From Agarophyton chilense (taxonomy: Eukaryota; Rhodophyta; Florideophyceae; Gracilariales; Gracilariaceae): a DNA stretch of 64,000 bases. The DNA lies in the NCBI GenBank assembly GCA_030374765.1, contig JARGXX010000022.1:496001-560000 (forward strand). Reading direction: 5' to 3'. The position numbers and the translations under genes were made by a program. Positions 28,881 to 62,871 of the stretch are shown one piece after another. The notes under the pieces were generated by a model, which saw nothing but the letters and a program-made list of their open reading frames with translations, did not search any database and was not told the DNA's origin. Positions within the stretch are counted from its first letter, which is position 1; each line of letters starts with the position of its first letter.

Positions 28881-28883
28881 AAT

Positions 28884-36000: not shown

Positions 36001-37218
36001 CTACTGGACCCCCTCCACAAAGTAGAGGAGGCCCAGCATCTCTTCTTCGTTCGCCTCGCCCCCGAGGGGGATGCGCATGTCCAAACGACGGATCGCAGCC
36101 CGCACACGCGGTGGCACGTACCACAATCGGTATTGGTCGTACGCCTCAGCGAGGATAAAAGCCGCAGTGCCGACGGCCCATTCGCTTACCACGACGGACC
36201 ACCACCCCGACTGGGGATCGTTCAAGAACGACGACCCTACATAGGTGAATACTGGGGGCAGCTCAACGAAGCAACCCCAGCACGCCTCCAAGGAGGACCA
36301 CCAGTCTGGGAGACTGACGTACCGACCACGTCGGTGAGCAGGCGCAATGCGCTCAATCTCCGTGTTCTGGTACGGTACAAAATACCCGGTCCGGGCCCGC
36401 CAACGCCGCTCATCGCGGATGAAGTTTCGAAGGAAGTTCGAGCGCGACTGCCGCGGTTGGTAGCGGAACTCTGCCCGAAGAATCGGTCGTGCCCAGCAAA
36501 GGGCTTCTTGCCGAGCGATCGGTGTGCCCCTCCAAACGAGGGTTTCCAATCCGTTAAGACGGTCACAGTACGACATTTCCCCGCGAGTGCAGTAAAGGTG
36601 GACGTCGAATTCGCCCTCTGGCGGTATCGGGAACTCGAAAGGCGCCCGATGGTGCCTGAGATAAGCGATCCGCACAAGCGTGGCTTGAGCCTCCGCAGAG
36701 GATTCACCGCGTCGGCGGAGTATGTGGTGTACCGGGATGGCGATACGATTACGCCAATCCCAGGACAGGGTCACCACGCCGGACAGGTCGCCCGGGAGCA
36801 TCTCCGAGTTATCGGTGTAGGATTGGATCAAATCCTCGTCGCGGACAGCCAATGGGTGAAACCAAGGCGCATACCGCAACCTCGCGGAGCCATGCCGAGT
36901 TCTCGGATTCGCACCCACAAGGGCGTCGTAGGTCGGCCACTGCGGTGGGTCCGCCTGTCCGCGAAAGCGGGCGCCAATACGGCGGTCTTCGTACGCGAGG
37001 TTGGTAATATCCCCAGGGTGGGGCGCAGACCGGAAGCCGGTGGAACCGCCAAGGGCGGGAGTCGCGGATGTGTTATGATGGTCGGGGTTGGACATGGTGC
37101 GCGTTGGTGTGCTGTGGTTGGAATCGGAGGCGGAGGGCGTGCGTGGGATCCTTGGTGAAGGTGTGTTGGTTTCCGGAGACCCGGTGTCCGACGCGCTCTT
37201 ATCATGACGAGCTGCCAT
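36001..37218 (-). CDS. Antisense ORF of element D, unknown protein family
   Basis: 405 codons from the ATG at 37218 (MAARHDKSASDTG), which lies 48 bp inside the 3' LTR boundary, to a TAG at 36001. Frame and similarity continue past the TAG to a TGA at 35635 (total 527 codons), including GDFVYFDPWEYHEI and an acidic tail, so the TAG is probably a W-to-stop change (element E has W there). Residues 1-75 are S/T/P-rich. Then come the blocks shared with E and H: WFHPLAVRDEDLI, GYFVPYQNTEIERI, CFVELPPVFTYVGSSF, YDQYRLWYVPPRVR. The product is rich in W, Y and R; no membrane helix, zinc site or known catalytic motif is recognised. Function unknown. Confidence 0.7.
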   Translation of the reverse strand: MAARHDKSASDTGSPETNTPSPRIPRTPSASDSNHSTPTRTMSNPDHHNTSATPALGGSTGFRSAPHPGDITNLAYEDRRIGARFRGQADPPQWPTYDALVGANPRTRHGSARLRYAPWFHPLAVRDEDLIQSYTDNSEMLPGDLSGVVTLSWDWRNRIAIPVHHILRRRGESSAEAQATLVRIAYLRHHRAPFEFPIPPEGEFDVHLYCTRGEMSYCDRLNGLETLVWRGTPIARQEALCWARPILRAEFRYQPRQSRSNFLRNFIRDERRWRARTGYFVPYQNTEIERIAPAHRRGRYVSLPDWWSSLEACWGCFVELPPVFTYVGSSFLNDPQSGWWSVVVSEWAVGTAAFILAEAYDQYRLWYVPPRVRAAIRRLDMRIPLGGEANEEEMLGLLYFVEGVQ

Positions 37219-37252
37219 GCCGACTTCCTCTTCGAGGTGTTCGCCCTGTCTT

Positions 37253-37265
37253 AAGGGGGGGGATA
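37253..37265 (+). other. Polypurine tract of element D
   Basis: AAGGGGGGGGATA immediately before the TG of the 3' LTR, the expected position of the plus-strand primer. Confidence 0.85.
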
Positions 37266-38129
37266 TGAAGAGCAACGTCCTCCAGGGAGGTTTTTGGGGA
37301 CTTAAGTTTTTTCCGGAGCCTCCGGCGTGCAACCTCGTTATGAGTAGGAGTAATCCGTTTCACGGCGATGACCGGAACGCCGGTGATGCACCGGCGGGAG
37401 CGGGTGCCATACACGTGGCCGCAGCGCCCGCGCGACACGTGGCCGCCAGATTGGCCCCTTTTGTTAGACGGACATTTAGCTATTTAGGATAGACTTTATT
37501 TATTGTATTCTACGGTGACTACAGTACTTAGGCCGCCGGCCTCGCGGCCGCCGGTCCAGTAAAGTCTCCCCAACAAGGGTGATCTTGGTCCTCCAGATCT
37601 TGGCTCTGGGTCGAACCGCCTGCGCGGATATAGAACTCCTTACGGAGGGATTTCCCGTGGTGCACGGCTTCCCAACCCCCTTGGACGTTCAAGCAGCCTT
37701 CGTGTGTTGGGTATCTATTCCCACTTTCGTGGTTCCGCCCGTGTATACGGTTTGCTACACCCGGCAGTGCCGGCTATTTCCGAGTCCCCTCTTGCGACTC
37801 GTGGTCAACCTCGCCCTCTTGCCTCCGTTCCCATTTTCCTTCCCTTTTCCTCCCCTTCATTGGGCAATTCCCGCTCTTGCGGCTCGCACTGACACCTGTC
37901 GTGCTCGCCACTCTCGTGGGTTTTGCCTCCTCAGAGGATACGCAAGCACCGCTTCGGCGGATATTCTCGGCTTCTTTCAACCTCCCTGCGCCCGTCGCGA
38001 CGGTTCGGCTCCGGCTTACACCCGGCATTGCGCGCCGATCCCTGGGAGGGCTCTACCGCGCCGGTTACCTCGTGAGAGGAAGATCCGGACGTCTTCGTAG
38101 GTTTTCCCCCTTGGGGGCATTGTCCTACA
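37266..38129 (+). repeat. 3' LTR of element D (864 bp)
   Basis: Same ends and length as the 5' LTR; differences seen include A/G at the CACC(A/G)GCGGG and ACAC(A/G)TGGCC sites. Followed directly by the target duplication CCCGT. Confidence 0.95.
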
Positions 38130-38592
38130 CCCGTCGCACGTTAGTTCATCCACCCCTCTGTCGACCAGAGTGCTACCACCACCGTGGGTTCATATTTAAT
38201 CGCCGACACTTGTCGTAGTCTCGCCCCTGTATAGGTTTTCGTCCTCGTTTTCCTCTTGTTCTCCTTTTTTGACTCTCGTGAGTGGCCGCCTCACTCACCT
38301 CCCTCGTCCATCTCATACGAGTGTTTCCTCGCTCCTTTTCCGACAATCGCCGTGGTACCGCTCCGCATAGGATTGGTCACACCCCGTACTGTGCCGTGCT
38401 CACCTGAACACTCTAGGTATATCCCGCCGGATTGGCCTCGGTCTTACACCCGACTCCGTCGTGCCTTTCCAGAGTGGCTCTGTTTCTGTGCTCCGCTGGG
38501 ACGCGTCTCCTCCGCCTGAGGCGTGTTTCTCAAGAGAGAAAGATCCCGAACATCTTCGTGGTGTCTCCGCTCCAAGCGTTGTCCTTCATACA
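38130..38592 (+). repeat. Right piece of the older LTR that element D interrupts
   Basis: Ends GCGTTGTCCTTCATACA, close to the end of the element D LTR (GCATTGTCCTACA), and shares GAAAGATCCCGA..TCTTCGT with it. After 38592 the transposase remnant resumes, so this solo or remnant LTR was inserted in the DNA transposon before element D arrived. Confidence 0.6.
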
Positions 38593-39200
38593 CGTTCTTT
38601 AAAGGGCCTCCCATGATTTAACATTTTTCTGTTGTTTCGGCGAACCGGAGATTTTTATACGTGGACATTGGGAAGCCTATAGTTTTGGGAGAATCAAAAA
38701 TCTATGAACGATCCAGTGAAGAAGAATATCGATGATGGCACTTGGCTTCGTGCTCAGATTCCAGACCTTATGATCGCTAACGTATCGATTAGACCGTATT
38801 TGATGGGTGTTTGCGCTTTTCAGTTGAGCCGTAATATGACGAAGACCTGCACGGAGCCCGGATAAAACTCCAACCCTGACTTAGTGCCTGGGATGGGGTT
38901 GCAAGCCAGAGGCGAAAGCCTTTGTAATGTGCCTTTGGGATGCTCAATCGCAGCTTTACGGTTCTAAGAGTTGGCATAAAGCTTTACCACGAAGACGATA
39001 TCGTTCGGTTTATATTTTTCTGCGTGGTTTTGCACAACTGGACAGTTGGAAATGGTCAAGATATTGAAGCGTATCTATGTTCCGACGAGGATGAAGATGC
39101 TAACGCTTTAGAACCGCAGAGACAACGGCAGGCAAAAAGCAACGCGATGCTCTTCTTTACTACATTACGAACGATTTTAGAGAGAAGTAGGAAGAGCTAG
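38593..39200 (+). pseudogene. PIF/Harbinger transposase, C-terminal half
   Basis: Resumes with YVDIGKPIVLGESKIYE (38660-38710), then RPYLMGVCAFQLSRNMTKT and, after frameshifts, VVLHNWTVGNGQDIEAYL, which match the end of PIF/Harbinger transposases (ending in the conserved xxLHN segment). Expected catalytic positions in the D-x-E part are altered (VLGES instead of xxHDS). It completes the N-terminal half at 27172-27690. Confidence 0.7.
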
Positions 39201-39303
39201 GACTTATCCACCAAGCGCTCTAAGACACGGCGTCTCTTTTTACACTCTTCGTTTCTCTTTCAAAGCTCCGAAATTAGGTTTTTATTCGTCTCTTCCTCTT
39301 TCT

Positions 39304-39925
39304 TTATAAATTCAGAAAGCAACTCATCACGAAAAATCGATAATTTCTAGCTAGTACTGGTACTTCCACGTTAAGAGGCAGTAAAACCTTCATCAGTTGA
39401 ATATTGTGCGGGATGATCGTATCTGGCTTTTCCGTCTTCCAACTCATGTATCTGTTCGTAGAACTCTGGAGTGTTGAATAGATCATCATCGTTTTCATCT
39501 CTGCCGGATAGCTTAAGCTTTTCAATACACGAAGACTACTCTTGCTTGATTCTTGAAAACTTCTCCTGCCATCCTTTCGCTGTGCGCTTGATGCCATGGC
39601 TTTGCTCTGCAATTTTTACCGTATCGAAAAACACTTCCTCTAGACTCTTCTTCTGTTGCTTGTGGTTGCCGTACCCAGCTTTCTTCATCATAGAGAAGAA
39701 CAGAATGACGTTGTCATTGTCTTAGTTTGGTTTTGTCGGGGAACTGGGGTTTGGTTCGTTCTTTGTCTGAGTGGCGCTTGAAGAAAGTGCTGGATTAATG
39801 CTTGTTTCAGTCTGCTCCGCGGTGAAAACATTGGCTTCAAAAGCAGTTGCTGGCTTTCCGGGGACGGAGTCCATTCCGTTTGTCGCCGAGTGTGGTGGCG
39901 TATCGCTGTGGGGAACGATAAACAT
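39304..39925 (-). pseudogene. Myb/SANT-like accessory protein remnant of the Harbinger element
   Basis: Convergent with the transposase. The minus strand reads, across a frameshift, FFDTVKIAEQSHGIKRTAKGW, a tryptophan-containing SANT-like stretch, then KLSGRDENDDDLFNTPEFYE and QIHELEDGKARYDHPAQYS, resembling the tail of Myb/SANT-type DNA-binding proteins that accompany PIF/Harbinger transposases. An N-terminal part with MFIVPHSDTPPH is at 39925. Not functional. Confidence 0.55.
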
Positions 39926-39972
39926 TGCAGAAAGAGCGCGTAGAACGATTAAAACCAGACAAATCCAATTGT

Positions 39973-40197
39973 TTAGAGTGAAAGCGGTCTAGGAAGAGTT
40001 GTTGGCGCGAAATCTGCAATCTCGCTCCCCATCCAAGGCCACCATAATTTCAGTTGAACGAAGTGCTTTGTGGACTGCATGGCCCACTGTCCAAGGTCAT
40101 CATGCATCGCCTTCACCACTTCGTCGCGCTCGCCATACTTCGGAACAACCTTCAGCACGGCGTTCGACTGGTTCAGGAGAATATCTCCCACACCCAC
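39973..40197 (-). pseudogene. Integrase zinc-region fragment of element F
   Basis: The minus strand reads VVPKYGERDEVVKAMHDDLG and KHFVQLKLWWPWMGSEIADF, the typical HHCC-flanking segment of a gypsy integrase (xxxHDxxGH...WWPxM). It stops abruptly at about 40005 and is followed by unrelated sequence on the left. Together with the pol remnant at 50669-53051 it is the host copy split by element E. Confidence 0.65.
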
Positions 40198-40838
40198 TGT
40201 AGTATCCGCTCTGATGGAGAGAGCAGACACCTGCGACAGTGTTCGGGACTGCCGAATGGGTGCTTGCGGCCAAGGGGAAGATGTGGTAAAGCACAACACT
40301 AGCGAGCTATAATGGGGGTTGTAAGGCCCCAATCGCCAATGAGGGTGGTTGGTATTATGGAACGGAAAACAACTAATTGTAGCTTGTCCGGATCTCCGGG
40401 TCAAAAATCCTGAACAAGGAACAAGACAGTTTGTAAACCCGTTGTTGTCTCCTTTACTTTGGAGTCGGCTCTCCCCTCTGTGCCTTATGTACTGAGCACC
40501 GCCTATAGTAGTATCTAGATATCACTAGGTTAGCCCATTGATCCTTCTACAGTACAGGATAAATAGCTCGAAATGGGCGTCCGCCTACGAAGGGTAGGCC
40601 TGAATGCCACGTGGCTACCCCCTATATGCCCCGTTGCCAATCCGGTATTTCCCTACAAAGGGTCGAATCGGATGTGCCGTTGCAGACCGAGATCCCAAGT
40701 GTAACATACCACCTAACGGACTATCTGCAGGGTTCCGCTTCATAACTTCATCCTAGCCGTTGCACTCACTTATGAGTATCATCATACTTAGCCAAAAAAA
40801 TCTTTCATCGGCATTCCGACAGTGCAGAATACTATACA
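40198..40838 (-). repeat. 3' LTR of element E (641 bp)
   Basis: Plus-strand start TGTAGTATCC, end ACTATACA. Next to it on the inside is the polypurine tract (minus-strand AACAGGGGGGA, plus 40839-40846). Aligns with 50023-50668 and with the LTR of element A. Confidence 0.88.
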
Positions 40839-41068
40839 TCCCCCCTGTTAAGCGCGAAGCACCGGCGACGCATGACGTCTTTATATATCGGAGCATGCAT
40901 CGGCATTCCGAAATTTCTTCGTTTCCACGAAAATACCATCTGTTTCGACTTGATCAGCGATGAACACATACGCCGCACAAGTCAAACAACGGAGAAGTAC
41001 TCTCAGAGGGTCCTTACGCCAGCATTGGCTTCGATTCGCAAGCTGCGTCGCCCTCGGCCTTCCGATCA

Positions 41069-42551
41069 ATGCGAACTTCTCGTGTCAGTTTCTACTCCTT
41101 GCCCTTACAGCCTTCATCTTCCGGTGTGATGCCGAATGCAGCGTTTGTATCCACCATTGGAATCATTCGAGCGCCGTCTCGTCGGGCTCAACGCAGTTAT
41201 CCACATCCCGCGGATTTGGTGGGACGAGACCCTCTCGACGATGCTGATCTCTTCGCGTAGGCTCTCTGGTTTGACCCAGTCGCTCTTCGCGATGACGCGT
41301 TGATCAACCGATACGTCTTCAGCGGTTACCTTCCCGATGGCCTTTCGTATGCGGCTTTCCGCAGCCACGATTGGCTTATTCACTGTGTTTTGCCAGCTAA
41401 CGCGATTGCCCGGTATACCAACGAAAGTATGCACGGAGCCCAAACTCGGTTCACCAAGCTGATTTACCAGCGTCTGCACCGGTTCATTAGCACGGTCGTT
41501 CTCATTGGAGATTGGAATCGGTATCCCTGGATGGCTCGCACGAATGGCGAAAGATACTTGTGCATCGAGACCTTATACGAAGTCGCCGTCGACGAATGGC
41601 GCGGCTTACGCGATGTACGCACGCGGCACTCTGCTTTCGCCGGCCCTTGCTCCGTGCGGACTTCCGCTTCCTCCACAAGAGAGATATTCCTTCCTGGGAT
41701 TATCCTCGTTGGGAACGACGTACAAGATCCCGCTTGGGGTACCTGGTTCCATACCAAATGATCGAGATTGATCGAGTTAGGCGGAATGCTAGCGTCGGAC
41801 GATATGTCGCGCTGCCAGAACACTGGGCAGAAATCGAGAGCCCTCGTGGATGTCCGGTGGAGCTTCCTGCTGCCATCACCTATATATTTGTTCCGCGTTG
41901 ATTAACGACCAAATCTCGGGATACTGCAAGGTCGTGTTCTCCGAGTTCATTGCCAAGATGGCGGCGTATATCCTCTGGGATGCTTACGATACCTATCGTG
42001 TTTGGTACATGTCGCAAACAGCGCGGAGATATGCGAGACAACTCGATCTTTCCCTTGTGTTGGAGTCACGTGCCAATTACAACGAATTCATACTCTTAGT
42101 AGACTTGGTCGACAGTATCGACTGGCATGGGGTTCCATTGGAGCAATCAGCTAGAGGCACAAGGGTGCGTCATCGAGATAACTCGCCGGGACGCACAGCT
42201 AATGCTGGAGATTTTGTGTGGTAAAATCCCTGGACCAGCCAGATAATCAGGTGTGATCAGGCTCGTGAACTTCGTGCGAATCCTAGGGAGTTCCATTCAA
42301 ATCATCATACTGGATATATGTACGAGTCCACAACTTCCGAGTTTGCAGATCAGGAGTATGAAGAAGCTCCAGGTGCTGATGCAGAACTCGATTTCGAGGA
42401 TGAACCTGAAATATCTGGTACTGCGCCTGTGACGGCTGCTTCGCCACCAACGGCTGCGACATCGGGTATCAACCCTTCAATGGGATACCATCATAGGTTT
42501 TCCAAACAACCGAGCGATGCAGAGGATCCCTTTTTGGCCCCGTTGAGGTAA
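41069..42551 (+). pseudogene. Antisense ORF of element E (degenerate)
   Basis: Plus-strand frames running from about 41069 to the TAG at 42549 carry the same blocks as the antisense product of element D in the same order: WFDPVALRDDALI (after an in-frame TAG at 41258), GYLVPYQMIEIDRV, CPVELPAAITYIF, YDTYRVWYMSQTARRYA, DWHGVPLEQ and GDFVW followed by a TAA, then an acidic tail. Frameshifts near 41640 and 41895 separate the pieces. The sense strand here codes for nothing recognisable, so the similarity must come from selection on, or descent of, the antisense reading. Confidence 0.65.
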
Positions 42552-42863
42552 TTCCTCTTAGACGCGGGTTTCCTCGAAGCACAGCAGCAAGGCGCTCGTG
42601 CTGCGTTTACCTCTATGCCGAATCATCATACCAGTGGGTATGTTTTTTGACCGATTTTAGATGCCGCCAACACCCTTGAGGCGATAACATAATCCAAATT
42701 CTTCTGTTTCCGTGACTTCACGTGTTCCTAAGCACTTCTTCTTCTTCTTCTTCTTCTTGAGTCTTCTTGCCTTCTTCTCGAGTCTCCTCCTCTTCTTCTT
42801 GAGTCTTCTCGTCTCCTTCTCGAGTTTTCTCGTCTCACATCCTTCTTCTGATGGGAAAGGGAA

Positions 42864-44045
42864 TTAACAGTCGCTCTGCGGATTTGCGTCTAGGAAACCC
42901 ATTATCGCGGCGTCGATCGCCACAGGGAGGGGTAGTCGAATGCGACGATGATAAAGCACAACCTGTGGGCGCAGGAAATGAGTTATAGGCTCCCAAGTAT
43001 CCGCTTCCGGAGGAAAACCGTACCAACGGATACAATACAGTAGTCTGTCTGTGTCTTCGTCTTCGCCGTGATCGATGATGCGATCTATGACATATCCCTG
43101 AACATTTCCCAACGTTTCGGCGGATGGCGCGAGGTTTCGGTTCACCGGCTTATACTGTTTGACAAAAAAACGCGTTGAATCCTGAGAGGATGTGACAACG
43201 TTGTCGTTTCGTTGAACCTCCCAAGAGAGCGCTTGGGAACTCCCTATATCTTCAGGTGTAACCTGCGTAGTCTGTTCCGACATCTGAGGGCCGTTTTGTG
43301 CCACTGTAGCGCGGCTCTAGGCTTCTGAATACATAGTCGTCGGGTCTATGGTTATCAGTTTTTCTTCTCGTTGCGTGTTCTTTCTGTCCTTCTTAGGGTC
43401 TTTAGTCAAGCTGGGCTTCTTCACCGAAGGTTCGGCTGGAGGTGCATCCACCACCAATGGAAGTGTGGCATCATCTTCGCTCTCTTCTCTTTCCTCGGCT
43501 GACAAGCGTGATCGCTCAGCAAGTGGCGTTCCACTTGATGGTTCAACCTGGACGGGTAATGGCGTGTGTAGAGCCGCTTCTGGACCGGATCTAATTGGAC
43601 CAAAATTGAAAATATCTTTCCTGTGTTCAGGTACTGTGGTCGTATCAGAGTTCTGGCTCTTGCCACGGGGCTTATTCAGATTTGTCGGAGAATTGCCGTG
43701 GGCTTCCACTGTACTCCCGCGCACCTGGAGATCCAGAGCCGTGTCAGCGCGGTGTTCCATGGAAGGCGGATTGTCTGACTCGACGGGTAGCTCCCGTGCC
43801 CGCTGATAAACAGGGATTCCCTTCCCAGTTTCCTGAGGTTCCGAGTTGTCTGGTGCGGTTTCAACGCGGTCGCGCGAAAATCGTTCAACGTCCTCTCCTG
43901 TCTTCAGGACTACTGAGCCATCGGTGAGCTCCATTACCTTTAAAGGTCCGGAGGCTACCGGTAGCAATTCGTGACGTGGTCCATCCTGCTTTTCAGGTCG
44001 TTCCAGGCGAACAAACGCATATCCTCCTACCCGGAGATCTGACAC
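42864..44045 (-). pseudogene. Post-integrase linker and chromodomain of element E
   Basis: The segment 43317-44045 is a linker with SGPLKVMELTDGSVVL (the post-integrase GPYKV-type motif). 42864-43304 contains a chromodomain: GYVIDRIIDHGEDEDTD, LYCIRWYGFPPEADTWEPI. The two pieces are separated by a stop. A chromodomain at this position directs insertion to particular chromatin in related elements. Confidence 0.75.
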
Positions 44046-44210
44046 CTGTCTTCGCCGTCAGACATCCGAATTACGTTTGTAACGCGCTTTCGTTTTTGCC
44101 AATTCTCGAGCCGCTTGCTCTTTCCTCAACCTCAGTTCGTTTTTCTACTTCAGATGGTTCTTCGCCGGTGTCGGTTTGTCTTTCTCGACTTCGTCCAACG
44201 TAATGGGTAG

Positions 44211-44948
44211 TTACGCTGGGCTGCATGATATCACGAGATCAAAAGGAACTGCCTTTGTAGACGTATGCACTTGCGTGTTGTACGCATAACAGAGTGTGTC
44301 TGTGTACATGTCCCACTCGTTTGGGTGATCCGCGATGTAATGCTGAAGAGCGGCTAATAACGTACGGTTGTAGCGTTCCACCTGAGTATTACACTGTGGA
44401 TGGTAGGTCGTGGTATACACATTCTTGATGCCCATTATTCGGCATACTTTCTGAAAGAACTTAGCGACAAACTGTTTTCCAATATCTGATAGCAAAACTT
44501 CAGGCGGTCCGTACACATACACCCAGTCTTTGATAAAATTCTGAGCTATTACCGAGGCGTTTATCGTCTTCAACGGTACAGTCCGTCCAAGTTTTGAGAA
44601 TCGATCCATAATTACCAATAGGGAGCGATATCCTTGATAGGAACGAGTTAGCTCTCCAAATATGTCGATTCTGACGAATTGTAGAGGGGCATTCGCCGGG
44701 AATAGGGTCATCTTTTTTCTCTTCTTGTAGAGTTTCACGCGATTCATCGCACACCTTCGTCATAGCTTTACTGTAGCATGGCAGTCCATTGCCAACGTTG
44801 GCCAATAGAAGTCCCTTCCCAGGGTCACAAACAACTTTGTTCCTCCTGGGTATCCAGATAGTTTCGCATAATGGGCCAAGTAGGGTACGCGACTTTTCAA
44901 ATCGTGCGTAACCACGATCTGATCATGCTTCTCGACATGTCTGAGCAA
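44211..44948 (-). pseudogene. Integrase of element E
   Basis: 44760-44948 holds the zinc region (LSGYPGGTKLFVTLGRDFYW, with a degenerate HHCC). 44211-44747 holds the core: DIFGEL with the first aspartate, VLLSDIGKQF with the second, and QCNTQVERYNRT with the glutamate. All three catalytic residues are in place, but a stop and frameshift separate the pieces. The usual N of the DNG motif is I (SDIGKQ), an atypical change. Confidence 0.8.
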
Positions 44949-45140
44949 TATACTTCGTTAATCGAGCGAAAAGAGCGAATCCTTCCCACCGTTAAGACGA
45001 GAGCGTATCGTTGTACAGAAGTTATCTGTGAGTTTCTCATTGAGGAGCTCAGAAATCGAGATACGCTCGAGTTGATCAGAAGGTTCCGTTCTATGGGTTT
45101 CCATAAGATGGTCCAATGGGGAGTCATCCCCTTCATCTTC

Positions 45141-46691
45141 TTAATCTTCAAGGTTCGTTTCATCGTTGTTCATCTCCATTGAGAAACACAGTAAATCGTA
45201 ATCGATTTCTCCTTGGGTTTCTCCAAATGTTTCCAATCGCGATAAAGCGTCGGCTTGTATATTAGCCAGTCCCCTCTTATATTTAACTACTAAATCGATT
45301 TCAGATAGTCGTAAGCGCCAACGTGTTAATCTCCCGGAGGGGTCTGTTATTGATAAGGACCATCGTAGGGACGAATGTTCCGTATGGATGGTAAACGTTT
45401 CTCCCTGGAGATAAGGTCGTAAAGTCGTGAGCGCCCACACTACTGCAAGGCATTCCTTCTCTGATACGGAGTAATTCTTCTCTGCAGCGTTCACCGTCCA
45501 TGACCAGCTACCGATTGGTTTCCTCTGACCGTCCGGATGGGTCTGAAAAAGTGCACCCCCTACCTGATACTCACTGGAATCTGTTTCCAGAGAATAGGGT
45601 AGGTTGGGTTTGAGCAATGCCAAGATTGGTGCTGTGACGAGTTTGTCTTCAAAGTCTTGAAGGATTCGTGTTCGGCGGGTTCGAATTTCTAGAGCTTAAC
45701 AGGCTGTCCCTTACGAAACAATGCGTTCAATGGAGCTGCAATGTGCGAGTAGCGCGGTATGAATCTTCTGTAGACGCTACATAATCCAAGAAAGGATCGC
45801 AATTGAGTCTGTGTGGACGGTGGTTGCGATTCGCGGACTGCCGCTGTCTAAGCTTCATGAATTGCAAGCTGATCAGGCCTAATCATGTGGCCCAAATAAT
45901 TCACATTATTAGCTATCCATTCGCATTTCTTGAACTTCAATCTTATAACTGCCGTTCCATATTTTGAGAGAAGATAATAACATTGTCAAAACAGACTAGA
46001 CATGTTTTCCATTTATATTTCGAGAGTAATATGTCGAGGGCGCGCTGGAAAGTTGCCGGAGCATGGACGAGTCCAAAGGGCATCCGCTTGAAGCGGTATA
46101 GTTCAGCATGTGACACAAATGCAGTCTTATCCTGATCTTTTTCGGCTACAGGAACCTGGAAATGGCCAGTGTTGGTGTCAAGCGTGGCGAACACGCTCGC
46201 ATCGCCTAAGCTGTCTATACACTCGTCCATGCGAGGCAATTGATATGTATTTCGTATCGTAACTGCCTTGAGTATCCGGTAGTTGGTAATGAATCGTAAA
46301 GAACCATCAGGTTTTGGGACTAACACCAAAGGTGAAGCCCAAGCAGATTGTGCTGCTTCTCTTACTACCGCTTCGAGTATTCGAGTATCTTCGCAACATT
46401 GCCCTCCTCGATTTGACGACTTCGCGGTCGTGCTCTGTAAGGTGGCTGAGAAATGGGACTAGATCCCGAAATAACATCAATATGATGTTCGGTGGCGGAG
46501 ATCTCTCCTAGTTTTTCACTCCACACAGAGGCATACGTTTTCAACATTTGTTTGATTCTTTCCTTAGAGCGTTCGGGAACATTCTCTAGAACTAGTTCTT
46601 CTACCAGCTTGTCTGGATCCTTCTGTTCTTCTGTCGTTTGCGACTGCTCTCTGGGACCGTCATGTGTGCCAGTTGATCTGTTCTGATACAT
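45141..46691 (-). pseudogene. Reverse transcriptase and RNase H of element E
   Basis: 46365-46691 is the protease/RT linker. 45943-46329 is RT with SLRFITNYRILKAVTI, ATLDTNTGHFQVPV and FGLVHAPATFQRAL; the catalytic box is CFDNVII, so the second aspartate is lost. 45141-45623 is RNase H (SLETDSSEYQVGGALF, SEKECLAVVWALTTLRPYL, HTEHSSLRW). Stops and frameshifts separate the segments. Confidence 0.8.
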
Positions 46692-46839
46692 CAGAAAGCC
46701 CTAGCACTTCTGCGGTAGAGACATGAGTCGGAACCACTGCTATAGGGTGCCGCAGAGCAGCTGCAACGATCCGATTCTTCGGTAAACGATAATCGTCATC
46801 GGTAAAGTTACGAATGAGTATTCGGAAGGGTTTGTTCGG

Positions 46840-47406
46840 TTAAACTTGGGCATTTCCATTCGCTGCGAGAAATCCTCGATGCTCGTACATATCTGCAGTA
46901 GGCTGGATTACCACGTGACCGTGTCGTTGTGTTATCACTTGTACCCAGGTTTCGGATTGAGCCTTTAACACCGTTCGTTTCGACACACGAATCTTTGAAG
47001 ATGTACAACTAAGAGCCAACTCGTATTCCATTGAGGGTGGAAGTGGAGCAGCTGTAGGGACTCTTCGTAGTGGTCTTCTCAATATAAGCACTGTCGAGCA
47101 ATCGTGAAACATAATTAGTCGACTCCGAGGGCGGATTGCTTCAAAAAATCTTTCGCAATAATCACATCCCAGAACAACTGGTGCGGCCAGTGACTTGCAG
47201 ACAGTAAACTTCCCCTTCACTAAAACTTGTCCGAGTCGAACGACCAACTTCACTGTTTCAAGTGTTCTCACTGCATTCCTATTAACATCTCGGATATCCC
47301 GCAACGGACCGTAACGAATTCGTTCCTGATCTGTGGGTCCTAGTTCGGATTTCCGAATAGAGTTCGGTCCGGCGCCTGTATCAAGAACTGTCAGGCGGCG
47401 GGTCAA
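46840..47406 (-). pseudogene. Aspartic protease of element E
   Basis: 188 codons with the active-site segment VLDTGAGPNSI and LGCDYCERFFEAIRP, closely similar to elements D and H. At the position of the element D stop it reads QPTADMYEHR, with D in place of the stop. Confidence 0.8.
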
Positions 47407-48027
47407 TAAATCCTTGTCCCACCGATGTCGGCATATACTTTATAGTTTCCCTTCTGCATTATCATAATAAAATTTCCCATTTCGACGGACAAGTATAACG
47501 TTTCCAAAGACGTTTGAGTCCACAGTCGAAATGTACTCGCTTTCCAACGGACGGATTCAATCCGCTCGACGGAAGATTATGAGTCCTCATCAGGACCTTG
47601 GCTTTCCAAGCTCGGGAACAAGGAGGCGAGTACTTCCTGGTCGGCTCTACGCCATGGAATATAGCCGACCCCGTAGGGGTTCCTTCACTTAGTTTCCCGA
47701 CTGAGGTGGGTCGTCCGCCCTTAAGGCGTTGCATCCAACTTGCGAATTTGCATGTGGTGCTTCAGTTTTATAAATCACTGGATCTCCAGATTGACGTCCA
47801 GGATGGTTGCTAAGCCATGCTTTCACCTTCCAGTAGGTACCAACCGGCACGCGGGTTCTTTCCCCCACTGAGAGAGTCTCTTAATTCGTGAGGACGCGAA
47901 ATAGATCCTTTGCCGGAAGGGTACATTCTGAAGATAGATGATGACGGCCATATCACAGATAGCATATTAAAGCTTCACGGCGTTCTGCCGACATCTGTCG
48001 TGATCGATACGCTATTCGCCTGTCCAC

Positions 48028-49807
48028 CTATCCAGGTTTTTCATTCTTGAATCCCCCATCCGGGGGTTCCATGTATGCACGGGGTACTGGGCGTCTGCCC
48101 TCCATAGCCATTAGAGCTTCTTCCTCCTGGTATTCTGAGTGAGGTAGATCCTCTGTTGGCACCGATGAGTGCCAATAATTCATTAGGTGAATAGACTCGT
48201 ATTGCAATTGGTTATCGTGCCTAACGAACGACGAATCTCGAGAGTCAACTGGAGATTCCAGGTGTAACACATTTCGAGCGGTTTTCACGGCCTGTTTGCA
48301 TCTTTCCTCTGCTTTCGATGCACCAAGCTTTGTGGTGTTCCGCGTTACTCCGCGGGCTGTGACTGCGTCACCTCCAGCTTGCGCAAACTGAACCAACTCC
48401 AGAAATTGGGTTCTTTCATGATTCTCTCGAATTTGAGACGTTAGAGATTTGATAGTAGGATCGAGCCCATCGATGAACAAGGTAATATTGTCCTCTTTTG
48501 AGTGACTTTTTCCACAGCGCGTGGCCGTTTTTTTAAGCCTCGAGCTGTACTCTGCTTCTCCCTCACTTGGTTTCTGGCTTACATCACGAAGATCCCGTAT
48601 AGCCTGTCGGATTGCGTTCGACGTCGCATAGCTTCGCAGTAAGTACTGCACTGCCTCCGGCAAGGATGTCACATCTCCTCCGTCAGCTGTCAGGTATCCG
48701 CAAACGGAACAATATTTCTCGGACGCAAAATCCGTCAAGAAATGAGAAAATGAAACCCAAGCTTGAGGTTCACTCATTTCTAAGGTGTTCGCCTCTGCAA
48801 GAAAATGAGTAAAAAAATCGATAACGAGAATGGGCGTTTTTCCATCGAAGACAAGATCATTCAGTCCAATGTTCAAACGCCTGATGTGGTCCTTAGCCTT
48901 TGCAGTTTCGCAACCCGATCGCTTCTTTCCTCCTCTCTTCAGGCGATAATATCTGTAGTCTAGAATTTTCCGATACCCTTAGCCAAGAAGACTTGTTCCT
49001 CTTCCTAGAACGGGAAATACGATGATCATCATCACTGAAATCGTCAGTGGACGTATTTCACGAGTGAGACTCGTCAGCACTGGAGTCCTCATCCTCCTAT
49101 TCTGTAGAATCATCATTAGTTTCCAGCTTGGACTTTCGCTTCTTGCGACGTCTCGACTTCGATATCTTCGAACGCTCTTCTCTCAAGGGGATTTCATTTT
49201 CGTCTCTCACGACTTAGGTAGCAGTAGTCTGCCCATTCACTACTGCCTCCAGGCGTTCCAGACGGGGGTTCACTCTAGTGAGGATTTCCTCAATGTCAAC
49301 GGTCAGGCCCGGTAAAGCCTCCGGAGCATTACTATGTTTTTCCATTACTTGGTTCAAATCCTCTCACAGGGTTCTCACAACCGCGGGCATCTGGTCCCTT
49401 TCTTCTCTACGAGCGAGTACGCCTTGTTCTCCGTGCAAGCTCTCCACATCCTCTCTAATGATCGTTATCTGCGATTCCAATCCAATGATTCGCTCACGAT
49501 AGGCGTTCGACTCAGATTTTAGACTAAGCACCTGAGCACGCAACTCATTTTCTCGGGCAGGGGTTACGATCTGTTGGTGTCCAGGTTCATTATGGGAACG
49601 ATCAGCCTCCGTGGTTGGTTCAATAGCCAACTCCACGAACATGGGTACATCCGAGAGATCTCGTCTATCGGTTACCGAACGAAAGAGTGTCATCGTCTGA
49701 CAATATATTCGCTCTCCGGCTTCTGTAGATGAGGCGAGCCTCTGTCGCGGACGTGGGTCTAAAGGACCCGGGGCACCAGTATTAGAATGTGTCTTCTTTT
49801 TCAGCAT
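48028..49807 (-). pseudogene. Gag of element E (degenerate)
   Basis: 49364-49807 is the N-terminal part starting MLKKKTHSN, similar to the gag of element A (DLSDVP, LKSES, LESQI). 48028-48876 holds the capsid-like domain (SLPEAVQYLLRSYATSNAI), similar to D. A stop and shift separate them. The zinc knuckle was not located. Confidence 0.8.
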
Positions 49808-50002
49808 TCCGAATAAATCCAATGTTCGGACACGTAATAATGGAGGTCTTCAATTGAATACGACAGCTTAGGTAAGTACGGAACTCCGTAATAGCTGGAA
49901 GTGTGTGGAACCGGTTCAAGAGATTGTGTTCCACTCGATTTAAAGATCGGTATCGATTCCATTTTCCAGGTGCGAAAATTTTGGAATAGCCAACCACAGT
50001 TT

Positions 50003-50020
50003 TTCTAAGTCGGGAGACCA
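50003..50020 (-). other. Primer-binding site of element E
   Basis: Minus-strand TGGTCTCCCGACTTAGAA, two bases from the 5' LTR; identical over 18 nt to the sites of elements A and D. Confidence 0.75.
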
Positions 50021-50022
50021 CT

Positions 50023-50668
50023 TGTAGTATCCGCTCTGACAGAGAGAGCAGACACCTGCGACAGTGTTCGGGACTGCCAAATGGGTGCTTACGGATAAGG
50101 GGAAGATGTGGTAGAGCACAACACTAGCGAGCTAGAATGGGGGTTGTAAGGCCCCACTCGCCAATGAGGGTGGTTGGTACTATGAAACGGACAAAAACCT
50201 ATTGTAGCTTATCCGGATCGCCAGTTAAGGAATCCTGAACAAGGAACAAGGCAGTTTGTAAACCCGTTGTTGTCTCCTTTACTTTGGAGTCGGCGCTCCC
50301 CTCTGTGCCTTATGTACTGGGCACAGTGGTGAGCGCCGCACATAATGAAATCTAGATATCACTTGTTTAGCCCATTAACCCCTCTACATTACAGGATAAC
50401 AAGCTCTAAATGCGCGTACGCCTACGAAGGGTAGGCCTCAATGCCACGTGGCTACCTCCTATATGCCCCGTTGCCAATCCTGTATTTCCCTACAAAGGCT
50501 CGAATCGGATGCGCCGTTGCAGACCGAGATCCCACGGGTAGCATACCACGGACTATCTGCGGGATTCCGCTTCATAACTTCATCCTATCCGTTGCACTCA
50601 CTTATGAGTATCATCATAATTAGCCAAAAAAAAATTCCATAGGCATTCCAACAGTGCAGAATACTACA
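50023..50668 (-). repeat. 5' LTR of element E (646 bp)
   Basis: Plus-strand start TGTAGTATCC and end ATACTACA form terminal inverted repeats. It is followed on the right by GCCAC, the partner of CCCAC at the other end. Confidence 0.9.
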
Positions 50669-53051: not shown

Positions 53052-53497
53052 TGTAACGCAACGACTGGTGGGTCAGCGTACTGGTCTCGACCTGGGGTAG
53101 CGTGGTAGAGCGGGTCCTAAGGTTCGTATCCTTGACAGCCGCACTCCCAGAGTACTTTGCGCAATGGGCTGGCGTTTATTGCGCAGTCATACAGGTCAGA
53201 GCTACGGAAACGATGGCTTGAAGACCAATTGGTGGAACTAATGTACCAAAGGGGGTAATTTAGTATCCTAACGATGCCTACCTTACTCTAAGAGAGAAGC
53301 GTCACTTGAGCCAATTAAATAGCAATTGCGAACCACTGGGATCTCCCTCGCACTGTAATATTAACCTATTACACTAATTAAATTAAAATAATTATGTAAA
53401 GGAGTCCAGCCGAGGTCAGCCAGTTCACGTGGCGTCTGTGAGACACCTCAAGCCCCGGCGTCTGACAAGGCTCAACCGTTATCGTTGCTCCTCCACA
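53052..53497 (+). repeat. LTR-like repeat C2 (446 bp), inverted copy of C1
   Basis: Starts TGTAACGCAACG and ends CTCCACA; reverse-complement homology to 3214-3655 covers its full length. It directly follows the open frame of element F. The five bases on the two sides (CGAGC, TATCT) do not match, so the target duplication is lost or this is not a simple solo LTR. On the plus strand it contains GGTTCGTATCC at 53121-53131 and GGTAGCGTGGTAGAGC just before it, resembling Pol III B and A boxes. Confidence 0.7.
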
Positions 53498-53724
53498 TAT
53501 CTCCCTCCTTAGAATTCGACTGTCACGGCGAAGTCCAGATTGCCTCATGATTGACCCAGGACACGTGAGCGCTTAGTTGCTCCCATGACCATTGGACGGG
53601 ACGGGACGTCGTATCGTCGTCACTTGCGGGGGTACGGGGAAGTGTGAGCTAAACATTGGCGCCGGGGTGGCAATTAATTTGCCTAAGGACTGAAACTCAA
53701 GCGCGCTGTGAGAACTGGCCATAA

Positions 53725-54558
53725 ATGCATCGCCGGCGTATTCCTCGTGTCGCGTTGGCGAGATGGTCCCTTGGCTTATTCAGCCCTGACCGTCATTGGG
53801 ACCTTCCTTATTCTCTGCTTCTCGTTTGGCGACCCTCCGCGCTCCATCCACCGTGGTTTACGTCTGTCAGTCCGCTCGCGTTAGTTCCATCATCTCATCT
53901 TCCCATCGTAATACTTTTCCATGGGTAGCGGGCGATGCCAAACTCCACTTATAAGCCCGTCGGATACGCCCTTCTTCCTCCGGACATTGACGCTTCCTTC
54001 GGTTCTCCTATTCATTTCCCGGCGGACCCACCGGTGGCCGGCGGCGCCATGGCTTTGAACAACCAAGTGGGGAGCTCCTCGGGATACCAATTGAGTCATG
54101 AGGGCCCCGCGGACAGCTAAAACCATACCATCAGACGAAATCCGCGGAAATGCTTCATGCCATTCTGCCGCACCGTTGGTATTACTCCCTCGATGGACAT
54201 TGCGACAGTCCTGAGAGAAAATTGCTCCTGGATGCCTCGCTCGGCGCGCTACGCCGCGGATGTCCAACAGGGTCAAGATCTGAAGACCGCTATGATCATT
54301 TTACTGCAGCAAAGTGCACAAATGATGTCCCAGAGCGTTACTGTCCACTTGGATGCCAGTGGTGGTCTAAATTTGAGCGACCGGGAGGCTGCCGATGGTA
54401 TCAACAGCTTCTCAGGTGAATCTCCGCCAAAAAAGCATGATCGGCTTGCTTGGGCCGGTCCTATTGGTACAGTGGGCTCCTCGGGTGACCCTTGTCCCGG
54501 TTTCGCTCCTGCAGATTCCAATGAGGACGAAAAAGTTATTACTGCGCTGCCCCATTGA
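53725..54558 (+). pseudogene. Plus-strand frame antisense to element G, possible relative of the antisense family
   Basis: One frame stays open from 53725 to 54558 apart from a TAG (53926) and a TAA (54118). It lies on the antisense side of the pol tail of element G, the same relative place as in D, E and H. The product (DIATVLRENCSWMPRS, SAQMMSQSVTVHLDAS) shows no clear similarity to the other antisense products, so membership is speculative. Confidence 0.25.
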
Positions 54559-54859
54559 GTCCTGTTGGTGTTCGGAGCGCTTTCGCGAACCATGAGGCCA
54601 TGGTGAGGGTTGTTAGTCCTCTACTAGTTAGTCAAAAAAGTAATGCTGGTGCTTTTCCAAAGTTGCTCCTGTATTCCTCAAACGTGCGTGCCCCGAGGCG
54701 GCTTCCGAATCCTGAGAGCGTCTCAGGTCTTCCTCAGGTGTCGCTTGAGGACTGGCTTTGTTCCCTGATGCGGGCGCTACGGCCAACCGTTGTGTTGGAA
54801 GGCGTATCGAGAGGCGTTTTGGGAGGCGGTTTTGCATTATTGGGCCCAATGGTTGCCCT

Positions 54860-55417
54860 TTCCTAAAGGCTGCGCTCCGTGCTGCCGATTTTACGCCAAT
54901 AGTTGGCGACAAACTTAACAGGAATGGTTTGAGGCTTTTGCCAAGTGTCTTCCTCAGGGGTGTAGTAGAACTAACGGACGAGATAGCGCACAGTTCCATC
55001 TTCTCCCCGACCGGCGGAGATGATATGCTCAATCATGTATTCCGGTTGGTGTTCATTCTCCAGAAGGAGAGTGTGGTCCAGAAGGGCAAATCCACCGGTG
55101 TCGGTTGGAAGAGATCGGTCATAGTCATTGGCATTGATGATCGGGTTACTGGGGCTATTCGGGTCCGTGGGAACTGCCTTAGGGAGTGTGGGGCCTTGAG
55201 CGTCGATCCGGGGTCGTAGTGATTTCGTTGGGCCAGAAAACTGGGACTTTGGTGTTTCGGGAGAGTTGGGGGCTCGTGTCACCCGATCAAAAGATACGGT
55301 GTCCTGTAGGCCTTCAATTAGTAATATAGTGGTGTTTTGATTGGCCTTAAAGACTTTATATGGTCCCGGAGAGTGGGGTGAGAGCTTCCTCGTAGTGCTC
55401 TCGAGTTCATCACTGTC
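54860..55417 (-). pseudogene. Element G: post-integrase tail and chromodomain (fragment)
   Basis: Minus strand from 55417: ELESTTRKLSPHSPGPYKVF (post-integrase motif), then TTILLIEGLQDTVSFDRVTR, and a chromodomain EYMIEHIISAGRGEDGTV plus RYLVR, an in-frame TAG where tryptophan is expected, FYYTPEEDTWQKP and VKFVANYW. The LTR of element H at 55418 truncates the upstream pol. It aligns with the tail of H, so G is another chromovirus-type element. Confidence 0.7.
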
Positions 55418-56594
55418 TGTAACGCAATGCGCTACTCGGGAGACCAGCCGCGGGCGGCGAGAGCTACACACGGGCAGAGCCTGGAAAGCCGGGGTCGGCT
55501 ATCTGGCCCTAGAGTCCGCAACGACTCAAGAGAGGCGTCGTCTCACAGGCGGGGAGTGTCGACTAGACACAGACTCCTATCGTTCCACAGGAGCTCTTGG
55601 CGTCCGGAAGACGTGCTCGGAGTGGTGTCGATCCGACACGAACCGAAGTGATCGGCCTGGATATACGCCGCGTATGACGAGTAGCCGGGGCGAACCCCGG
55701 GATTGTACCAGAGCCCGGACGAGCGCCACGACCCTAACGTTGGCAACGACGCACCAACCACTTCCCCCAACGGGTGGCGATAACAAAGCAGGGCAAGCCC
55801 TGAGATTGTACCAGCGCTCAGACGAGAGCGTCTGCTTGGCTATGCCGACTGGCGCCACAAAGTGGTAATCACTCACACCCAACGGGTGACGATAACAAAG
55901 CAGGGCAAGCCCTGGGATTGAACCAGCGCCCAGACGAATGCGCCTGCCTGGCTTTACCAGCTGCACCTGGAAGTGATACTCACTTATCCGAGGCTCCCGA
56001 TCCACACCTCGGTATCCAACAGATACGGGTCTACAATCTGCTCGGGCAGTAGAACTGCCAGCGGTCCAACAGACCGAGCGAAAGTGCAATGCGCCACGCG
56101 GCGACCGATGGCCGTGAGGGCAAAAACTGGACGGGGAATTCTCGATAGGCTAAAACGCGAGAGATACCTCTGCAGCAGTTGATCAGACTGCTGCCTGTCT
56201 TGTCGGCGTCGACTGGGAACGAAGGTCTTATAACCCTATAGTCTCAAGACACGAACTAGTAGTTCGGAGGCGTCTCTCCCGTCTTCGACTTTACTTTGGT
56301 CTAGCCCCCGGCGACCCCGCGCTCAAGTACCCCCGGCCGCTTAGCAGTTAGCCATTACGATAGATTACAACTAATAAATACAATTAAAAATTAAAAGGCA
56401 GCAGTGCAGAGCACTGTATGGTGCCAACCACACGAACTAGCTGCCGGCCATTGCCACACGTATGACACCTGGCGCCATGCACGGTATTCCATCCTGGCAG
56501 TGTGCCAGCTATTACGGCGTCGTCACTGCTTAGTGTAAGGAGGTCGGAGGAGGGTGGCTACTTGTCCTCAATAAGGGCCCGGCGCGTTGCGTCA
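55418..56594 (-). repeat. 3' LTR of element H (about 1177 bp)
   Basis: Ends form imperfect terminal inverted repeats: plus-strand TGTAACGCAATGCGC at the left and GCGCGTTGCGTCA at the right. A purine tract follows on the right (minus strand GAGAAGGGGGTAGGG). The second LTR lies outside the window, so the boundaries are inferred from these features rather than by comparison. Confidence 0.6.
55655..55990. repeat. Tandem repeat in the LTR of element H (about 112-bp period)
   Basis: Two clear copies start at 55767 and 55879 (CCAACGGGTG.CGATAACAAA, AAGCAGGGCAAGCCCTG.GATTG.ACC), with a partial degenerate copy from about 55655 sharing GGGATTGTACCAGAGC. Repeats in the U3/R part of LTRs are common and may modulate promoter activity. 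Confidence 0.7.
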
Positions 56595-56609
56595 CCCTAC
56601 CCCCTTCTC
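56595..56609 (-). other. Polypurine tract of element H
   Basis: Minus-strand GAGAAGGGGGTAGGG immediately before TGACGC of the 3' LTR. Confidence 0.6.
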
Positions 56610-56700
56610 AGCTTGTAGGGTCCCCGCTACAGCCAAGAGTGATCCCGATCACAAGACAGCATAGCATCGATGATATTGCTTCAACTGTGCCACGCACAGT

Positions 56701-58521
56701 ATGATAAGAACGGATCCCTGCAAGCGCCGCCGCGATGGCCACCGTGAACCGCTCTTCGATCGATCGCTTCAACGGGTTCGCTGGGCCTCCGAGACAACCT
56801 TGGCTCGTCCTGAAGTCCCAATAGGACTCGCGAAAGTAGCCACATGGCTACGAGATGTCGCAGACATCGAAGAGTGCTTCCGCTCATACACCTTCAGAGA
56901 GATGGCTAGCCATCCTTCGTCGGACCTGACCGTGTGGGGTCGCCGTCACTTCTTGCGGCTGCTAATCGAACGACGAGCGCGTCTTGCCGCGTTCCTCCGC
57001 TTAATTTCCGATGACTTCATCGGCCGGGTAGACATCGAGTTCTACCGACGTCCGGCGGATGAGCCGTACGTAGCGAGGACGCTACGCGAAAGCTTCCTGA
57101 ACAGGGTTGAAAGTTGGGCGGACGACCGCCCTCTGGTTCACAAGCTTTGCTTGCCTTTCCCGTACCTCTGCGAGGATGCTGAGGGGATTGCCTGGCTGAC
57201 CACCTTCAAGGAAGTCCACAACGGCATGGGTGCCGAGGAGATTGAGCGCATCCTACGGAATCCGAAAATACTCCGGGTGCTGCCTCCGACGGTCATCCGT
57301 GACAACGGAGCCAATTGGGTCCTCGACCCCTGTAGGCGCGATGCGTCAGGCGACTTTGTCGCAAGGGTACTACCTCCGATGGACGCTTGGCTCGACCAAA
57401 TCATGACGTACACGCCACATTCTTGGCGACAATTCGAGCGCATGCGCCGCCATAAGTACAAGGTTCTGGTAGCCTACCACCAAGTCGAGGTCGACTGCTT
57501 CCAGAAAGATGTCATCCGCGACATATCATGGCCGTTGCCATCGTGGTGGGAGGAAGTTGAAGTCCCCTACGGGTTCTTCAACGAAATTCCGCCGGTAGTC
57601 GTCTACCGTGGCTCATACTTCACCACGTATCCTGGATAACAAACAGTGCTCCGCACTGAATGGGCCTGCTCGGTGGCACGCCATCTCATCTATGAGGCCC
57701 GCGCGGGTCGCTTATGGTGGATCCCTCCACCGGTACGCAAGGACATAAGAGATCTTAATCTCACTGGCGTCGAGCCCGATCTGGCTGATGACGAGCGACG
57801 CAACGCCGAAGCGAAGAGTCTGGAGACTCTACTCGAATTTATCGACAAGACCTGGTGGTCTTCTCTTCCAAAAGACGGGGTGTTTCCTGACTTCCCTGCG
57901 ACGCCACGCGTCCGAATGTGTGGCGCAATGCGCCCTGCCCACAACGATGGAGCAACTCCAGTGCATCGCGGCTGTGATTGGGTTGTCTTCAACCCAATCC
58001 TTTGGACTTTGGACATTCCAGAACAATACCTAGTCATCCATGACCAAGGAGGCAACCTCGTTGTGGAGAATCCGCGGGCGGACTTCATCGCTCCTCTCTC
58101 TGTAGGTCGGGTATCTACCTCGTCGAACTCGACGAAATCGGTACGCCTTGCAGAATGGCGTCGCCAACAATTAGCGAAGCTAGCCTCCGAACCGAAGGAT
58201 GTCGACATGGTCGACCAACCGTTGGTTAAATGGCCAAAACTTGGATTGGTGCCCGCACCGCCAAGTGAGCTTGCAAAAGAGAACTCCGCTGCAGCTCTAC
58301 TGGATGCCCTCAAGGCCTACGGGGTGACGAGCCTTGCTCAACTCCAGGCCTGGATGGCCAACAACCCTTCGTCAACGCCGGGACCTGCTGCAGTAGCCGC
58401 ACCAACCACTTCGACTACGGGGGCTATCCCTGATATCAGCAGCACTGCCGTGCCTGCAGGGCCGTCGACGGCCCCTGGGGACGAACTCCTAGATAGTGAG
58501 GAGGAATTATCTCAAGTGTAG
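56701..58521 (+). pseudogene. Antisense ORF of element H (one in-frame stop)
   Basis: Open for 606 codons from ATG 56701, 106 bp beyond the LTR end, except for one TAA at 57637. Shared blocks with D and E: LVAYHQVEVDCF, the FFNEIPPVVVYRGSYF segment, RLWWIPPPVRKDIRDLNL, and DWVVFNPILW in the position of the GDFVYFDPW block. The N-terminal half (residues 1-220) is R/W/E-rich and has LRDVADIEECFRSYTFREM with no recognised domain. It ends with an acidic tail (LLDSEEELSQV). It does not overlap pol (which ends at about 58740-58862). Listed as a pseudogene only because of the single stop. Confidence 0.65.
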
Positions 58522-62765: not shown

Positions 62766-62871
62766 CTTGGGGCTCCGCGTTGTACTTGCGAAGGACCTGG
62801 GGTTGCGCGGACACCGCGCTAGGTCGTAGGGCCTGGTATCCTCTTCGTGGAGGCGTGAGTCCTGCAACGAA

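What the first reader, a model, noticed from the sequence alone, without database searches (positions are those of the whole stretch)
36001..58521. A conserved antisense gene family carried by gypsy retrotransposons
Three different Ty3/gypsy elements (D at 28-38 kb, E at 40-51 kb, H at 55-64 kb) each contain a long frame on the strand opposite to gag-pol, between the chromodomain and the 3' LTR. The products align in the same order: WF.P.A.RD..LI (D, E), (F/V)P/AY...E(I/V) (D, E, H), E(L/I)P...(T/V)Y (D, E, H), R(L/V)W(Y/W) (D, E, H), D(F/W)V..(F)NP/DP (D, E, H). The sense strand there has no recognisable product and gag-pol has already ended. In D the start codon lies next to the LTR and in H 106 bp from it, suggesting an antisense promoter in or near the 3' LTR. 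Antisense genes from LTRs are known in retroviruses (for example HTLV-1 HBZ) and extra or antisense ORFs in some plant gypsy elements; a shared family like this one I do not recognise. This is the best candidate for an undescribed system in the window.
Basis: partly seen in the sequence, partly recalled or inferred. Interest (0 to 1): 0.85.

Follow-up and report, generated by a model that had tools for sequence, protein, structure and literature searches.

The report
Antisense gene family in seaweed retrotransposons
Several families of a common type of jumping gene in a red seaweed carry an extra, evolutionarily preserved protein gene written on the opposite strand, whose predicted shape matched nothing in the structure libraries searched; the arrangement is known from some plant and fungal jumping genes, but this protein family appears to be new.

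Summary
The window lies in an unnamed 79.8 Mb genome; named relatives of the protein are Gracilariaceae red algae. Elements D, E and H each carry a homologous frame antisense to gag-pol, 3' of pol. In the window D's frame ends early, E's is broken and H's has one in-frame stop, but elsewhere frames reach about 590-690 codons: 63 of 95 scored D-type, 18 of 29 H-type (first 312 codons) and 41 of 71 F-type matches lack a stop. Among 69 D-type pol places, 52 had the gene listed within 3 kb, each on the opposite strand and 3' of pol. Between families the antisense frame is the best conserved of six (dN 0.40, dS 2.0; dN 0.58, dS 2.4). A Gracilariopsis chorda protein is 57-71% identical to D-type. 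Pfam, PHROGs and PDB sequences gave nothing reliable; the core folds confidently (pLDDT 81, pTM 0.79), mostly helical, without a structural match. The kind is known (antisense additional ORFs of Grande, RIRE2, Retand, Boty); this protein family, in chromodomain-bearing red-algal elements, was not found in print. Expression, promoter and function are untested; a nuclear regulatory accessory protein is the best guess.

The parts
28017..38129 (+). Element D: Ty3/gypsy LTR retrotransposon with chromodomain-like end, no integrase found in its pol ORF
   Evidence: LTR pair 99.2% identical; TSD CCCGT/CCCGT; RVT_1 and RNase H Pfam hits, no rve; Chromo 21.8 bits, below the 25.1 cut-off
28017..28880 (+). 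D 5' LTR
28884..28899 (+). D primer-binding-site candidate TGGTCTCCCGACTTAG; the same 16 nt lie beside the E 5' LTR
   Evidence: read from sequence; tRNA match not tested
28917..31115 (+). D gag ORF
   Evidence: named by position and a CX2CX4HX4C pattern read by eye (inference)
31877..35110 (+). D pol: RT-RNase H-linker-chromodomain-like, no integrase found
   Evidence: the same stretch is gap-free in other copies
36001..37332 (-). D antisense ORF (443 aa; first ATG at 37218; ends early relative to other copies)
37251..37265 (+). D polypurine-tract candidate
   Evidence: read from sequence
37266..38129 (+). D 3' LTR, immediately upstream of the antisense gene; presumed site of the antisense promoter
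   Evidence: promoter is inference
40194..50666 (-). Element E: older gypsy element, gag-pol on the minus strand, LTRs 40194-40834 and 50018-50666
   Evidence: 88% LTR identity; Chromo 35.7 bits, over the cut-off, in ORF 42864-43304
41261..42548 (+). E antisense gene, broken over three frames (41261-41758, 41491-41898, 41793-42548 with a stop inside)
56701..58521 (+). H antisense gene, one frame with a single in-frame stop; other copies give a 615-codon open frame
58862..63993 (-). Element H gag-pol (integrase present); 5' LTR outside the window

Best explanation
A real protein-coding accessory gene, antisense to gag-pol, carried by at least four related gypsy families (D, E, F, H) in a red alga, most likely of the Gracilariaceae; a fifth protein group (G) is known without its element. 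Shown: the frame is open in many copies, homologous between families, opposite to pol in each of the 52 D-type pairs found, under purifying selection between families, and represented in other Gracilariaceae species. Inferred: it is transcribed convergently to gag-pol from a promoter in or beside the 3' LTR, because the start codon lies only about 50-90 nt from the LTR edge or polypurine tract. Inferred, weaker: the protein has a disordered N-terminus (about 120 aa), a mostly helical core of about 370 aa, a low-confidence linker with a DPxVDN-type motif in most proteins, and a short C-terminal helical pair; it would work as a non-enzymatic accessory factor in the nucleus that tunes element transcription or escorts the pre-integration complex, in the way suggested for the Grande and Retand antisense proteins.
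For: Homology in the antisense frame. Matches without a stop over the aligned part: 63 of 95 D-type, the window copy included; 18 of 29 H-type over the first 312 codons, the window copy included; 41 of 71 F-type over 618 codons; 17 of 79 for the E-like protein P0008, which matches the E fragment at 43% over 129 aa. Opposite strand and 3' of pol in 52 of 52 D-type pairs found among 69 pol places; gap 895-901 nt in 42 of 52. Within-family dN/dS 0.49 (27 D-type copies) and 0.56 (24 distinct H-type), lowest of six frames. Spectrum-corrected omega 0.88/0.86 for singletons (near neutral, as expected after insertion) and 0.59 (p 0.04)/0.71 (p 0.2) for shared variants. Between families dN 0.40 vs dS 2.02 (D-G), 0.58 vs 2.44 (D-F); D-G antisense frame 489 bits vs 252 for the best sense frame. 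Gracilariopsis chorda BWQ96_03215 matches D-type at 57-71% identity. Core model pLDDT 81.1, pTM 0.79. Highest 19-residue mean hydropathy 1.06-1.57 in 11 proteins, so no convincing membrane span.
Against: No RNA or protein evidence was available. Shared-variant omega for H-type is not significant and for D-type only just. Another sense frame also gave low dN/dS within families (0.58 and 0.65), which I ascribe to shared third positions because it holds 13 and 7 stops on average. The between-family test kept only codons in stretches of at least 30% identity and dS is saturated, so omega there is rough and leans to the conserved core. The copies used were the best-scoring matches, so they lean towards intact ones. 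Classical NLS patterns appear only in the H-type protein, 1 of 11. The Ish1-like C-terminus rests on one sub-threshold hit (P0008, E 0.092). Codon usage did not discriminate: for H-type the antisense frame is less like pol than several other frames. For 17 of 69 D-type pol places no antisense gene was listed; the lists are capped, so this shows neither presence nor absence.
Confidence: 0.6

Rival explanations
1. The open frame is a by-product of composition or of a sense-strand product: codon usage of a real sense gene opens its mirror frame.
For: A 397-aa sense ORF lies in exact mirror register over the D antisense frame, and mirror frames can open together. A second sense frame also scores low dN/dS (0.58, 0.65) and is the runner-up in bits.
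Against: The mirror sense frame averages 3 (D-type) and 11 (H-type) stops with omega 1.07 and 2.29 for shared variants; the other sense frame averages 13 and 7 stops; antisense bits exceed sense bits in all four family comparisons; open length exceeds every one of 200 shuffles in four regions.
Confidence: 0.03
2. The antisense transcript, not the protein, matters: it pairs with the genomic RNA and limits retrotransposition through double-stranded RNA.
For: Convergent layout means full-length sense RNA is complementary to any antisense mRNA; such a role is discussed for plant antisense ORFs (PMC7264820).
Against: An RNA-only role does not explain amino-acid-level conservation or a confident protein fold. 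Both roles could hold together.
Confidence: 0.12
3. The protein is structural or particle-associated: an Env-like, movement-like or second Gag-like protein, not a nuclear regulator.
For: Size (about 600 aa), mostly helical core, position between pol and the 3' LTR where env sits.
Against: Antisense orientation; no clear membrane helix; profile comparison with the elements' own Gag (3 sequences) found nothing (E 0.84); no PDB fold match and no viral one for the full-length model.
Confidence: 0.15
4. A captured host gene that hitch-hikes without function in the element.
For: Origin is unknown.
Against: The three protein searches listed only hits without Pfam domains and, where named, hypothetical or unnamed proteins of Gracilariaceae; whether any of those is a host gene was not tested. 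Selection and presence in at least four families speak against a passenger.
Confidence: 0.06

Closest known systems
Antisense additional ORFs (aORF-3R / eORF-3'R) of plant gypsy elements: maize Grande gene23, rice RIRE2, Silene Retand ORF4
   Same: Position between pol and 3' LTR, antisense to gag-pol, present in most copies of a family, function unknown (PMC7264820, parts 1 and 2 of 3 read; PMC11963269, passages).
   Different: Those lie in flowering-plant elements; Retand is described as non-chromovirus and its antisense ORFs carry TRP28/PF04195. Here the elements end in a chromodomain (over Pfam's cut-off in E and F, below it in D and H), the host is a red alga, and PF04195 gave no match over cut-off in the genome.
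Boty of Botrytis cinerea (fungal gypsy element with an antisense ORF)
   Different: Sequence not compared here.
HTLV-1 HBZ and other antisense retroviral genes
   Same: Antisense gene at the 3' end with a 3' LTR promoter (for HTLV as stated in PMC7264820); an analogy only.
   Different: No sequence or fold relation was tested. That HBZ is a much smaller bZIP protein is recalled, from no call.

Membership tests
[quoted passage not shown]
   D in window; 52 of 52 D-type pairs 3' of pol
Antisense additional ORF class (aORF-3R / eORF-3'R) of gypsy elements | Opposite orientation to gag-pol | tested here: met
   52 of 52 D-type pairs; F-type in L070 and L071
Antisense additional ORF class (aORF-3R / eORF-3'R) of gypsy elements | Conserved in many copies of a family, at least 250 codons | tested here: met
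   the 250-codon figure is from PMC6317226, passages
Antisense additional ORF class (aORF-3R / eORF-3'R) of gypsy elements | Own antisense transcription (reported for Grande) | not testable with these tools
   no RNA data
Retand TRP28 (PF04195) antisense proteins | PF04195 domain | tested here: not met
   PF04195 not among Pfam hits of the antisense proteins; one sub-threshold hit elsewhere in the genome
Ty3/gypsy LTR retrotransposon (host element) | LTRs TG...CA with target duplication, and RT-RNase H-integrase order | tested here: met
   LTRs and duplication for D; RT-RH-integrase order for H; RNase H-integrase for F. D itself lacks integrase. PBS and PPT are read by eye only
Chromovirus (chromodomain gypsy) | Chromodomain at the pol end | tested here: inconclusive
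   Chromo over cut-off in E (35.7) and F (32.4), below it in D (21.8), H-type (19.7) and D-type L010 (11.8); cut-off 25.1. RT phylogeny not done
Env-like protein | Sense orientation to gag-pol | tested here: not met
   antisense in 52 of 52
Env-like protein | Transmembrane helix and signal peptide | tested here: inconclusive
   highest mean hydropathy 1.06-1.57; no dedicated predictor; signal peptide not tested

The most novel reading that the evidence does not exclude
An ancient, independently originated antisense accessory gene of red-algal chromodomain gypsy elements that encodes a new, mostly helical fold and acts in trans as a master regulator or integration partner of several element families, including integrase-less copies that still carry it.
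Probability: 0.3. Interest if true: 0.75.

Novelty: new variant of a known kind. Interest (0 to 1): 0.52.

Why it matters
What antisense genes of LTR retrotransposons do is described as unknown in the review read (PMC7264820). Here is a large protein family, kept by selection in at least four element families of one compact genome and represented in other Gracilariaceae, with a confidently predicted core, which makes structure, localisation and binding directly testable. It also extends the phenomenon to red algae and to chromodomain-bearing elements, which suggests that such genes arose more than once.

Tried and rejected
Second-Gag origin: hhalign of the antisense profile against a profile of three Gag sequences gave nothing. 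Homology to Retand TRP28: not found. PHROGs, PDB sequences, PDB and viral folds: nothing usable. Codon-usage similarity to pol: uninformative. Literature on red-algal antisense ORFs: nothing on this family in the listings; some searches asked for only part of their terms, and 39 and 40 listed mostly unrelated papers. The sense ORF over D was considered and rejected as a gene. Dropped rows: three D-type loci (L025, L028, L038) and one H-type (L068) fell out because they did not match in register; H-type went from 29 to 24 after removing identical copies. In one search two of the 71 rows, second pieces of places already listed, were left out, and 20 antisense places were added to the 95. The regular expression missed the motif in P0005; one search recounts it.
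Full report
What the window is. The window is G000:C22:496001-560000 of a 79.8 Mb genome. All hits of the antisense protein that bear a species name come from Gracilariopsis chorda, Gracilaria domingensis or Agarophyton chilense; the first and last are placed in Gracilariaceae, the second from recall. Other hits bear no species name. The F-type protein is 96% identical over 40% of its length to a partial A. chilense protein. The host is therefore most likely a Gracilaria/Agarophyton-like red alga; the species was not established.

The elements. D (28017-38129) is a young gypsy element: LTRs 99.2% identical, target duplication CCCGT, gag and pol on the plus strand. E (40194-50666) is older, LTRs 88% identical. 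H has its gag-pol on the minus strand (58862-63993) and runs out of the window. Pfam finds RT and RNase H in D and RT, RNase H and integrase in H, RNase H and integrase in F. Chromodomain scores: E 35.7 and F 32.4 bits, over the cut-off of 25.1; D 21.8, H-type L046 19.7 and D-type L010 11.8, below it.

The antisense gene. D/E and D/H are most similar in the antisense frame (108 and 68 bits, best sense frames 53 and 36). In the genome a search with the D protein scored 95 places (2056 first-look candidates), 63 of them without a stop, open frames up to 685 codons. H-type, searched with the first 312 residues: 29 matches over that length, 18 without a stop. A third family, F (locus L070 on C68), has a 618-aa antisense gene, 71 scored matches, 41 without a stop. 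A fourth protein group, G (L072 on C71), is 49% identical to D-type; only 1.9 kb was read, so its element was not seen. P0008, which resembles the E fragment (43% over 129 aa), matches 79 places at 51-62% identity, 17 without a stop. These lists are capped, so totals are lower bounds, and they favour well-preserved copies. In three copies (L010, L046, L071) the antisense and pol frames converge without overlapping, about 180-405 nt apart.

Placement. Of 69 D-type pol places, 52 had a listed antisense gene within 3 kb; all 52 were on the opposite strand and 3' of pol, 42 of them 895-901 nt from the pol match. For 17 none was listed, which the capped lists cannot decide.

Selection. Within D-type (27 copies) and H-type (24 distinct copies), dN/dS is lowest in the antisense frame (0.49 and 0.56). 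One other frame is low (0.58, 0.65): the sense frame that shares third positions with it; it has 13 and 7 stops on average, so I read it as a shadow. With the mutation spectrum taken into account, singletons are near neutral (0.88, 0.86) while shared variants are lower (0.59, p 0.04; 0.71, p 0.2); the mirror sense frame gives 1.07 and 2.29. Between families: D-G dN 0.40, dS 2.02 over 505 of 554 codons; D-F 0.58, 2.44 over 350 of 574; F-G 0.58 with dS saturated over 438 of 555; D-H 0.71 with dS saturated over 170 of 487. The codons left out are those in stretches under 30% identity, so these values favour the conserved core. In all four comparisons the antisense frame has the most bits (489, 263, 313, 68; runners-up 252, 102, 143, 35). 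The G. chorda protein P0001 matches D-type at 57-71%, so the frame has been kept open across genera.

How it may work. Start codons lie 47 nt from the LTR edge (D) and 63 and 89 nt from a polypurine-tract candidate (F, H), so the promoter is probably in the LTR (inference). By analogy with Grande gene23, which the review says is nuclear and transcribed antisense from a promoter upstream of the gene (PMC7264820), and Retand TRP28 proteins, predicted to bind DNA (PMC11963269, passages), a nuclear regulatory or pre-integration role is the most likely. Nothing here tests it.

Novelty. The class is known; this protein family, in chromodomain-bearing gypsy elements of red algae, was not found in print in searches, which cover only open-licence PubMed Central papers and were judged from the listings, plus passages of PMC6338049, PMC5408684, PMC6317226 and PMC12477816. 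I rate it a new variant of a known kind.

A fifth family was reduced to a protein group without a seen element, the motif count was raised from 7 to 8 of 11, distances and gap counts were recomputed, and chromodomains were tested. None of this required changing the odds.

Noticed in passing
window 31877-35110 and G000 copies: D-type pol seems to exist in two forms: 24 of 69 scored places match the integrase-less D pol over residues 1-635/636 without a gap (4 more nearly so; longest open frame 1419 codons), while 40 match only from residue 198-210 on (open frames up to 1847 codons, presumably with integrase, which was not read). In one place (C16) the two pieces are only 603 nt apart. The integrase-less query favours its own kind.
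   Followed up: partly
G000 C5:11188-51059, C68:3138136-3157789, C77:295775-306352, C7:631157-641834: Antisense genes recur at exact spacings (9734, 9197, 9249, 9745 nt), which looks like head-to-tail arrays of whole elements sharing LTRs, or an assembly artefact.
   Followed up: no
window 28157-28169 and 37406-37418; genome-wide: GCCATACACGTGG (core CACGTG) occurs 1086 times in the genome against 1 for the reversed control; it lies in both D LTRs and upstream of the F-type antisense start, a possible shared LTR promoter element.
   Followed up: partly
window 28884-28899 and 50005-50020: D and E share a 16-nt primer-binding-site candidate, TGGTCTCCCGACTTAG; the tRNA was not identified.
   Followed up: no
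window 37495-37505 and 56373-56380: AATAAATA on the antisense strand roughly 215-240 nt from the LTR edge (D) or polypurine-tract candidate (H), a possible antisense TATA-like site; seen by eye in two families only.
   Followed up: no
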